Source: an uncultured archaeon (GTDB taxonomy: Archaea; Altiarchaeota; Altiarchaeia; IMC4; SCGC-AAA252-I15). From it: 49,274 bases of DNA. The notes below the pieces were generated by a model. That model did no database searches. It saw only the letters and a program-made list of their open reading frames with translations, and was not told the origin of the DNA. This document shows positions 28,361 through 29,826 of this stretch, in pieces. Position numbers and translations under genes: made by a program. The first letter of the stretch is position 1; each line of letters starts with the position of its first letter. The stretch is from contig CABMCB010000053.1 of NCBI GenBank assembly GCA_902384455.1, positions 1-49,274 of the forward strand. Reading direction: 5' to 3'.

Positions 28361-29137
28361 TTAATCGAATGCTTGCAGGGGTTTGCAGAGTTTGCTGTCG
28401 AATTCGCACAGTATTGCGTTTGCGGCTATTTCCGGCACGCAGACTACGTTGTGGGCTCCGGCCATCTTCATTTTTTTGACTGAGTCGGGTCTGTTGGCGC
28501 GGGCGTATATTTTGGCTTTAGGGTTCATTTCTTTGGCGGTCAGTATTGTGAACACCGTTTCTGGGTCGCTGTTTAATGCGATTATTACTGCTGACGCCCG
28601 TTCTACGCCCGCTTTTTTGAGTACGCCGGATTCCGTTGATGTCCCCTCGACTATGGGGTATCCTGCGTTCAGTGCTGCTTCTACTGACGCATCCCTGTTT
28701 TCTACGACGACTACTGATTGTAGCCCAGATGCTACGCGGGCTCCTACGTCTCCGTAGCCGCAAAGCACCACATGGTTTTTCATCTTCTTTATTTTGTCTT
28801 GCATTTGCTCCATCTTGAACACCTCAATCATCTTTCCTTCGAATATCGTTACGGATACGGCCGATAGGAGGTAAAGGTATGCTCCTACTCCGAGGGGGAT
28901 GAACATTATTAGGAATATTTTGGTTTCGTGGCTGGTGGGTGTGATGTCGCCGTATCCTATTGTGGATAGTGTGACTACTGTGAAGTAAAGTGAGTCCATA
29001 AGCGACAGGTGTTCTAGCCGCGTGAAGCTGAACGTCCCGATAAGTAAGACGAAGAGTATGAAAGCTATTGCTCCCAGTAGGTGCCGAAACGACCTGTGCA
29101 GGTGCTGGAAGAGCGATGTCGGACCGAATTCCATCAT
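28361..29137 (-). CDS. Two-helix potassium channel with RCK (TrkA-N) domain
   Basis: A 258-residue MthK-like channel subunit. Membrane helix 1 is at about 21-38, the selectivity filter TIGYGD at 59-64, helix 2 at about 73-98, and the RCK Rossmann domain starts at NHVVLCGYGDVGARV (121-135). The protein ends after the first RCK subdomain, so the C-terminal lobe of MthK is missing. The Asp184, Glu210 and Glu212 calcium ligands of MthK align (from memory) with Ala, Arg and Asn here, which argues against the same calcium gate. An internal ribosome binding site and ATG at codon 109 could give a separate RCK protein of 150 residues. Confidence 0.93.
   Translation of the reverse strand: MMEFGPTSLFQHLHRSFRHLLGAIAFILFVLLIGTFSFTRLEHLSLMDSLYFTVVTLSTIGYGDITPTSHETKIFLIMFIPLGVGAYLYLLSAVSVTIFEGKMIEVFKMEQMQDKIKKMKNHVVLCGYGDVGARVASGLQSVVVVENRDASVEAALNAGYPIVEGTSTESGVLKKAGVERASAVIIALNSDPETVFTILTAKEMNPKAKIYARANRPDSVKKMKMAGAHNVVCVPEIAANAILCEFDSKLCKPLQAFD
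28811..28825 (-). promoter_or_regulatory. Internal ribosome binding site and start codon for a free RCK subunit
   Basis: On the minus strand GAGGTG (28820-28825) lies six bases before an in-frame ATG (28811-28813), Met109 of the channel. It is one of the best Shine-Dalgarno matches in this window and is inside a coding region. In MthK of Methanothermobacter, an internal start at Met107 is known to make soluble RCK subunits that complete the eight-member gating ring. The near-identical position makes the same use here likely. Confidence 0.65.
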
Positions 29138-29171: not shown

Positions 29172-29735
29172 TTATGCGTCTTGGCCTTGGGCTATTTCGT
29201 AGTCGCATTTGCAGTGGCCGGGGTTTTCTTCGTCTCCTTTGACGAATATGCATTTGCCTTGTGGGCACGCTAGTCCTTTGCAGTCGTCTTGTGATGTGGC
29301 GTTTGTTTCTCCCCAGCAGTATTTTTTGGTTGGGGTGGATGTTTCTGTTGTGTTGCCGCAGGCTATTGTTGTTGAGGAGGATATGCATGCGGGTTCTGTT
29401 GTGGTGGTTGAAGTGGTTGTGGTTGTCGTAGTCGTTGTGGGTGTCGTAGTCGTTGTTGTGGTTTCTTCTGTTGTGGTGGTGGTTTCTTCAGTGAGGGTTG
29501 TTGTAGATGGTTCGTTTGTTGTGGGGGTTGCGGGTTCGTTGAGTGTTGTCGTTGACGCCTCAGATGTTTCTGGCGTTGTTTCTCCGGCTATGAGTCTGGC
29601 GGCGGTCGCCCTAATGTCGTTTAGAGTCGGCAGCGTCGGCTTGCCTGAGGACAGAAGAGAGACGATGCCTAACGTTATGGCGCAGAACAATACCAGCGTA
29701 AGCACAAATAAAATGTGCCTTATCACCCCTGCCAT
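29172..29735 (-). CDS. Membrane-anchored Thr-rich stalk protein with Cys-rich head
   Basis: Starting at ATG 29735 the protein has 187 residues: one N-terminal membrane helix (about 4-30), a stalk of about 70 residues dominated by Thr (runs of seven to nine Thr), and a head with eight or so Cys (CISSSTTIACG, KKYCWGETNATSQDDCKG, CPQGKCIF and HCKCDYE). Thr-rich stalks are typically O-glycosylated cell-surface spacers. A GTG at 29756 would add seven residues, but a TTTTAAA box at 29762-29768 fits the later start. No function is known. It resembles in layout the protein at 35256-36182. Confidence 0.75.
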   Translation of the reverse strand: MAGVIRHILFVLTLVLFCAITLGIVSLLSSGKPTLPTLNDIRATAARLIAGETTPETSEASTTTLNEPATPTTNEPSTTTLTEETTTTTEETTTTTTTPTTTTTTTTTSTTTTEPACISSSTTIACGNTTETSTPTKKYCWGETNATSQDDCKGLACPQGKCIFVKGDEENPGHCKCDYEIAQGQDA

Positions 29736-29826
29736 ACCGGTTAGAAACAGGGACACGTCCGTTTAAAATCCTGTTTTGACCGGCTTTCACACAGTATATT
29801 TCGTTTTGCTTCCCATATTTGACTGG

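What the first reader, a model, noticed from the sequence alone, without database searches (positions are those of the whole stretch)
28811..28825. Internal ribosome binding site in the RCK channel gene at the MthK position
GAGGTG followed six bases later by ATG encodes Met109, at the link between pore and RCK domain. MthK uses Met107 to make free RCK subunits that complete its gating ring. The same solution at almost the same residue in a distant protein suggests an old and selected design, even though the calcium ligands and C-terminal lobe of MthK are missing here.
Basis: partly seen in the sequence, partly recalled or inferred. Interest (0 to 1): 0.6.

Follow-up and report, generated by a model that had tools for sequence, protein, structure and literature searches.

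The report
Hidden start inside potassium-channel gene
An archaeal potassium-channel gene carries a second ribosome landing site just before its sensor domain, and the same kind of hidden start is preserved at the DNA level in most related two-helix channels of bacteria and archaea, which supports the idea that cells make loose sensor domains to complete the channel's gating ring.

Summary
In detail: GAGGTG-TTCAAG-ATG lies in frame at 28825-28811 (minus strand), encoding Met109 of a 258-residue 2TM + RCK_N channel from an Altiarchaeota genome. GAGGTG pairs with the 16S tail of its relatives, and only 4 of 1,299 internal ATGs in this genome have as good a site. Taken alone it is modest (P about 0.04 by synonymous shuffling).

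Relatives make it convincing. In 2TM single-RCK channels, a start codon stands 10 residues before the RCK beta-1 histidine in 111/131 genes. It is preceded by Shine-Dalgarno sequence far more often than codon shuffles allow (73/98 vs 32.5±4.0), while other Mets of the same genes show no excess. The result repeated in an unused sample (SD>=5: 20/40 vs 4.6±1.8). Where Met is replaced, the codon is usually TTG or GTG. RCK_N-only channels of the window's kind also show it; the two nearest orthologues keep GAGGTG with TTG at Met109.

The register slides between lineages, and two of seven Altiarchaeota genes lack a strong site. Internal RCK starts are a known kind (MthK). The free 150-residue product and its role are inferred.

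The parts
28361..29137 (-). full-length 2TM + RCK_N potassium-channel-like gene (258 aa), no RCK C-lobe
   Evidence: filter TLSTIGYGD; best solved relative MthK by sequence (1.7e-26) and by fold
29132..29137 (-). primary start ATGATG, without SD sequence upstream
   Evidence: no SD match; leaderless start is inference
28844..29062 (-). pore domain (Ion_trans_2), residues 26-98
28820..28825 (-). internal Shine-Dalgarno GAGGTG (codons 105-106)
   Evidence: identical in orthologues L002 and L003
28811..28813 (-). internal start codon ATG, Met109 (H-13)
   Evidence: TTG at the same column in L002 and L003
28361..28813 (-). predicted internal product: free RCK_N protein of 150 residues plus stop
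   Evidence: inference from the SD and start codon; the model places Met109 in the helix 70-117 that runs from the inner helix to the RCK, with beta-1 at 123-126
28802..28804 (-). Met112 (H-10): the column of MthK Met107 and of the family-wide internal start; here without a well-spaced SD
28439..28771 (-). RCK_N / TrkA_N domain, residues 123-233

Best explanation
The gene makes two proteins from one frame. Full-length translation from Met1 or Met2 gives the membrane channel with a tethered RCK_N domain. Ribosomes also bind GAGGTG inside the linker and start at Met109, giving a free 150-residue RCK_N protein. The free copies pair with the tethered ones to fill the gating ring under the tetrameric pore, as in MthK. 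Shown by sequence: the site itself, its rarity in the genome, its codon-level conservation in orthologues, and a strong position-specific selection for SD + start codon at this junction across the channel family. Inferred: that Met109 is actually used in this organism, the amount made, and that the product completes a ring made of N-lobes only.
For: Own site: exact SD, 6-nt gap, 4/1299 in genome. Nearest orthologues L002/L003 (48/46% identical to the window; 59% to each other, with only 70 of 147 identical residues sharing a codon) keep GAG GTG N6 with TTG. In 7 Altiarchaeota channels, SD>=5 + start codon in the linker: 5 observed, 0.64 expected by codon shuffle, p<0.001. RCK_N-only channels: 15/33 with ATG + SD>=5 vs 6.7±1.8; replication 13/16 vs 4.7±1.5, SD>=6 10/16 vs 2.2±1.1, including GGAGGTG-N6-ATG; GAGGTGA-N5-ATG also occurs. 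2TM N+C-lobe channels: SD>=4 before Met(H-10) 73/98 vs 32.5±4.0, other Mets of the same genes 109/586 vs 108.7±7.6; replication SD>=5 20/40 vs 4.6±1.8; holds with one gene per 45%-identity cluster. GGAG, AGGA and GAGG are the most enriched of all 4-mers; RR pairs spell GGAGG in 37% at the site vs 4% elsewhere. Leu at H-10 is TTG in 11/21 vs 1.9 expected and 6/7 in the replication; Val is GTG 8/8. Some archaea encode the free RCK as a separate gene next to the channel. Literature: MthK internal start Met107 (PMC9440719, PMC3510474).
Against: For the window gene alone the shuffle P is 0.04. Met109 itself is not conserved (TTG in two orthologues, non-start codons in the others); L006 and L008 have no SD>=5 start in the linker. 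MthK orthologues in Methanobacteriaceae keep the ATG but have little SD. Elimination of the putative internal start of E. coli Kch did not alter expression or function (Kuo 2003, cited in PMC2920069), and the relevance of octameric rings was disputed there. No expression data exist for this organism.
Confidence: 0.76

Rival explanations
1. Chance: E-V happens to be spelled GAG GTG before a methionine that is there for protein reasons; nothing starts at Met109.
For: P = 0.04 by synonymous shuffling of this gene; four such sites exist in 228 genes; Met109 is not conserved as a residue.
Against: GAGGTG is identical in L002 and L003 although their codons are otherwise scrambled; Altiarchaeota set 5 vs 0.64 expected; family-wide position-specific excess, replicated.
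Confidence: 0.17
2. The SD-like sequence pauses elongating ribosomes at the membrane/RCK border to help insertion or folding; it is not a start site.
For: The site lies at the domain border; SD-like sequences inside genes have been proposed to pause ribosomes (general knowledge).
Against: The SD excess vanishes in genes with no start codon at the site (5 observed vs 5.0 expected, n=16), peaks at one position 6-7 nt before the start codon, and the start codon itself is protected: Leu as TTG and Val as GTG. Pausing needs none of this.
Confidence: 0.05
3. Internal initiation is real but the free RCK_N serves another purpose (for example a decoy, a regulator of Trk uptake, or a dimer partner outside a ring), because the domain lacks the C-lobe used in the MthK ring.
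For: No RCK_C; in E. coli Kch, also without C-lobe, RCK domains were reported not to interact as in octameric rings (review PMC4565861); the genome also has an unlinked TrkA.
Against: RCK_N-only channels of Nanoarchaeota have the strongest internal sites, as if free copies matter most there; split genes place free RCK_N beside channel genes.
Confidence: 0.2

Closest known systems
MthK, Ca2+-gated K+ channel of Methanothermobacter (Met107 internal start)
   Same: 2TM + RCK; free RCK made from an internal methionine at the inner-helix/RCK linker; closest solved structure by sequence and fold
   Different: MthK Met107 is at H-10, the window start at H-13; MthK has an RCK C-lobe and Ca2+ gating, the window protein has no C-lobe; MthK orthologues have a weak SD where the window has a strong one
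RCK_N-only channels of Nanoarchaeota/Woesearchaeota (L109, L111, L233, L250, L325-L341)
   Same: same domain order and size; GAGGTG or GGAGGTG 5-7 nt before an in-frame ATG just upstream of RCK beta-1
   Different: start at H-9, H-10 or H-6 instead of H-13; several have degenerate selectivity filters
E. coli Kch
   Same: channel with RCK_N only; internal start at Met240 once proposed
   Different: longer N-terminal membrane part (6TM); Met240 at H-5 with no SD at good spacing; eliminating the putative internal start had no effect (Kuo 2003 as cited in PMC2920069)
T. maritima TM1088A/B two-subunit TrkA ring
   Same: two RCK proteins of one ring from one transcript, with an internal ribosome binding site (PMC4380455)
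   Different: overlapping stop/start of two genes, not nested frames; part of a Trk transporter

Membership tests
2TM potassium channel with RCK/TrkA_N domain | pore with TxGYG-type filter followed by TrkA_N | tested here: met
   TLSTIGYGD; PF07885 5.9e-16, PF02254 3.3e-29; MthK best hit in PDB by sequence and fold
MthK-type channel | RCK C-lobe (TrkA_C) | tested here: not met
   protein ends about 25 residues after TrkA_N; no TrkA_C hit
MthK-type channel | internal start at the column of Met107 (H-10) | tested here: not met
   Met112 is in that column but has no spaced SD; the SD serves Met109 at H-13
Channels with internally initiated free RCK | in-frame start codon with SD at proper spacing in the linker | tested here: met
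   GAGGTG, 6 nt, ATG
Channels with internally initiated free RCK | site conserved beyond protein constraint in relatives | tested here: met
   5/7 Altiarchaeota vs 0.64 expected; family-wide tests
Channels with internally initiated free RCK | free RCK protein present in cells | not testable with these tools
   no expression or proteomic data for this organism
Octameric RCK gating ring | four tethered plus four free RCK domains assemble | not testable with these tools
   needs biochemistry or a structure

The most novel reading that the evidence does not exclude
Across bacterial and archaeal 2TM RCK channels the linker is doubly coded: its peptide motifs (RRRKM, EVxxM, GGVxxM, RRxRxL with TTG) are the protein shadow of an internal ribosome site. 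What is conserved is 'a start codon behind a Shine-Dalgarno', not a residue or a register, and channels that have lost the RCK C-lobe still depend on it, implying a minimal gating ring of N-lobes only.
Probability: 0.6. Interest if true: 0.68.

Novelty: new member of a known kind. Interest (0 to 1): 0.56.

Why it matters
Whether the free RCK subunits of MthK are a general, physiological feature or an oddity seen on overexpression has been disputed: PMC3510474 says most single-RCK prokaryotic channels need the internal start, PMC2920069 doubts it. Codon-level selection at this one spot, replicated in unused genomes and absent from 6TM Kch-like channels, is direct evidence that evolution maintains the second start in 2TM channels. 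It explains the recurrent RRRKM-type linker motif, predicts which channels make free RCK and which do not, and gives a two-base test (synonymous changes in GAGGTG or AGGAGG) for the stoichiometry question.

Tried and rejected
Met109 as the exact homologue of MthK Met107: rejected; anchored on the RCK His, Met112 is. Conservation of Met109 as residue: not found. Ribosome pausing: rejected by genes without a start codon. General codon-pair bias for AGG-AGG: rejected, 37% at the site vs 4% elsewhere. Special RNA structure at the site: none (z -0.16). 16S of the own genome: absent, relatives used instead. No closer orthologue than 48% exists in the order (24 genomes). A true dual-RCK negative control could not be assembled (only two such genes); 6TM channels served instead. 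The first script on split-gene loci printed nothing; ORF lists were used. M. thermautotrophicus MthK DNA itself was not reached, only orthologues 66-67% identical.

Full report
1. The site. On the minus strand 28825-28811 reads GAG GTG TTC AAG ATG, codons 105-109 of the ORF 28361-29137, a 258-residue protein. It has an Ion_trans_2 pore with filter TLSTIGYGD and a TrkA_N (RCK_N) domain at 123-233, and no TrkA_C. The best relative among solved structures is MthK, by sequence and by fold of an AlphaFold2 model (pLDDT 79). The model shows one helix from 70 to 117, covering the inner helix and the linker, with RCK beta-1 at 123-126; Met109 lies in the linker part of that helix. The order relatives are Altiarchaeota, and their 16S rRNA ends in GGATCACCTCC, so GAGGTG is a perfect six-base Shine-Dalgarno (SD) match.

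2. Chance. In 228 genes of the same genome only 4 of 1,299 in-frame internal ATGs have an SD match of six bases at a gap of 4-10; this is one of them. The gene's own start ATGATG has none, which fits a leaderless or weakly led start (inference). Shuffling the gene's codons among its own synonymous positions gives a linker site this good in 4.1% of trials. The single site is therefore suggestive only.

3. Nearest relatives. The order holds 24 genomes and seven orthologues besides the window, at most 48% identical. In L002 and L003 the DNA is GAG GTG CTT AAA TTG: the same SD, the same gap, and TTG where the window has ATG. These two genes share 147 of 249 residues, but only 70 of those 147 use the same codon, so the DNA is otherwise well scrambled. 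L004 and L005 have GAGGT-N8-ATG at H-3 instead; L006 and L008 have nothing comparable (H = the first residue of RCK beta-1, His122 in the window). In total 5 of 7 non-redundant Altiarchaeota genes carry a start codon with SD>=5 in the linker, against 0.64 expected from codon shuffles (p<0.001). Met109 as a residue is not conserved; a start behind an SD largely is.

4. The family. I gathered homologues from GTDB genomes and from group searches and reduced them to 181 channels below 85% identity. In 2TM channels with a full RCK, a start codon stands at H-10 in 111 of 131. This is the column of MthK Met107 and of window Met112. An SD of at least four bases precedes Met(H-10) in 73 of 98, against 32.5±4.0 in within-gene codon shuffles; at least five bases in 38 against 11.6±2.6. 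All other internal Mets of the same genes give 109 of 586 against 108.7±7.6, so there is no general effect. The SD excess sits at one codon position, 6-7 nt before the start. GGAG, AGGA and GAGG are the three most enriched 4-mers of all. Arg-Arg pairs spell GGAGG in 37% of cases here and 4% elsewhere.

5. The start codon, not the amino acid. Leu at H-10 is TTG in 11 of 21 against 1.9 expected. In seven Chloroflexota genes it is TTG in all seven, while neighbouring conserved Leu columns are almost all CTN. In the 16 full-RCK channels without any start codon near the site the SD count equals the null (5 vs 5.0). This argues for initiation and against pausing.

6. Replication. Eighty loci not used above were then fetched, leaving 60 non-redundant genes. 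In full-RCK channels a start codon is at H-10 in 40 of 44 (26 ATG, 8 GTG, 6 TTG). SD>=5 occurs in 20 of 40 against 4.6±1.8 (maximum 11 in 500 shuffles), with other Mets again at the null. Val(H-10) is GTG 8 of 8 and Leu is TTG 6 of 7. Keeping one gene per 60, 50 or 45% identity cluster leaves the result intact. Relatedness within phyla means the p-values should be read as strong, not exact.

7. The window's own kind, RCK_N only. In 33 such genes 15 have ATG + SD>=5 in the linker against 6.7±1.8. In the unused set 13 of 16 do, against 4.7±1.5, and 10 of 16 have six bases or more against 2.2±1.1. Many Nanoarchaeota read GGA GGT GTN NNN NNN ATG or GAG GTG AGA NTA ATG, the same arrangement as the window in another register (H-9 or nearby). 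The register therefore slides (H-13, H-10, H-9, H-6, H-3), as expected if the nucleic-acid signal is what matters.

8. Exceptions that fit. Long-N-terminus (6TM, Kch-like) channels lack the start and the SD. E. coli kch has Met240 at H-5 without a spaced SD, and eliminating the putative internal start there had no effect (Kuo 2003, cited in PMC2920069). In three archaeal genomes a free RCK gene lies directly beside channel genes (L365, L366, L367), and the channels examined there (those of L366 and L367) show no internal site. MthK orthologues in Methanobacteriaceae keep ATG at H-10 but have a weak SD, so a strong SD is not indispensable.

9. What is known. MthK's four free RCK domains come from Met107 (PMC9440719). 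PMC3510474 states that most single-RCK prokaryotic channels need such an internal start; the review PMC4565861 lists several reports; PMC2920069 disputes the general relevance of octamers. I found no paper in the held library that tests codon-level conservation of the site, but subscription journals are largely missing from it. The window gene is thus a new member of a known kind, with two differences: no C-lobe and a shifted register.

10. Verdict. Observation confirmed; interpretation partly supported. Internal initiation at Met109 is likely. That the product completes a gating ring is a reasonable inference from MthK, weaker here because the C-lobe is absent.

Noticed in passing
L366:241-2158 (-), L365:371-2280 (-), L367:36-1775 (-): Three archaeal genomes encode a free-standing RCK protein (140, 135 and 231 aa) directly beside channel-like genes with RCK domains; the channels examined there (L366, L367) lack an internal start, as if the free RCK had been split off as its own gene.
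   Followed up: partly
L265, L267, L275, L276, L278, L281, L283 linker (H-10): Chloroflexota channels have Leu at H-10, always TTG, mostly with GGAG/AGGAG-like sequence before it; in the replication set Val(H-10) is GTG in 8 of 8.
   Followed up: yes
L052, L056, L059, L060, L094, L193-L196; L284 kch: 6TM Kch-like channels consistently lack both the start codon and the SD at the linker.
   Followed up: partly
L228, L229, L253, L254, L330-L340: Nanoarchaeota RCK_N-only proteins, several with degenerate pore filters, have GGAGG/GGAGGT-type sequence before an in-frame ATG; some may be non-conducting or have unusual selectivity.
   Followed up: no
window 29172-29756 (-): Gene 34 bases upstream of the channel encodes a Thr-rich tract followed by a short Cys-rich tail after one hydrophobic segment; it may be co-transcribed with the channel.
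   Followed up: no
own genome, 228 genes: Few predicted gene starts have a strong SD (20 of 228 with five or more bases at the leftmost start), suggesting mostly leaderless or weakly led genes.
   Followed up: partly
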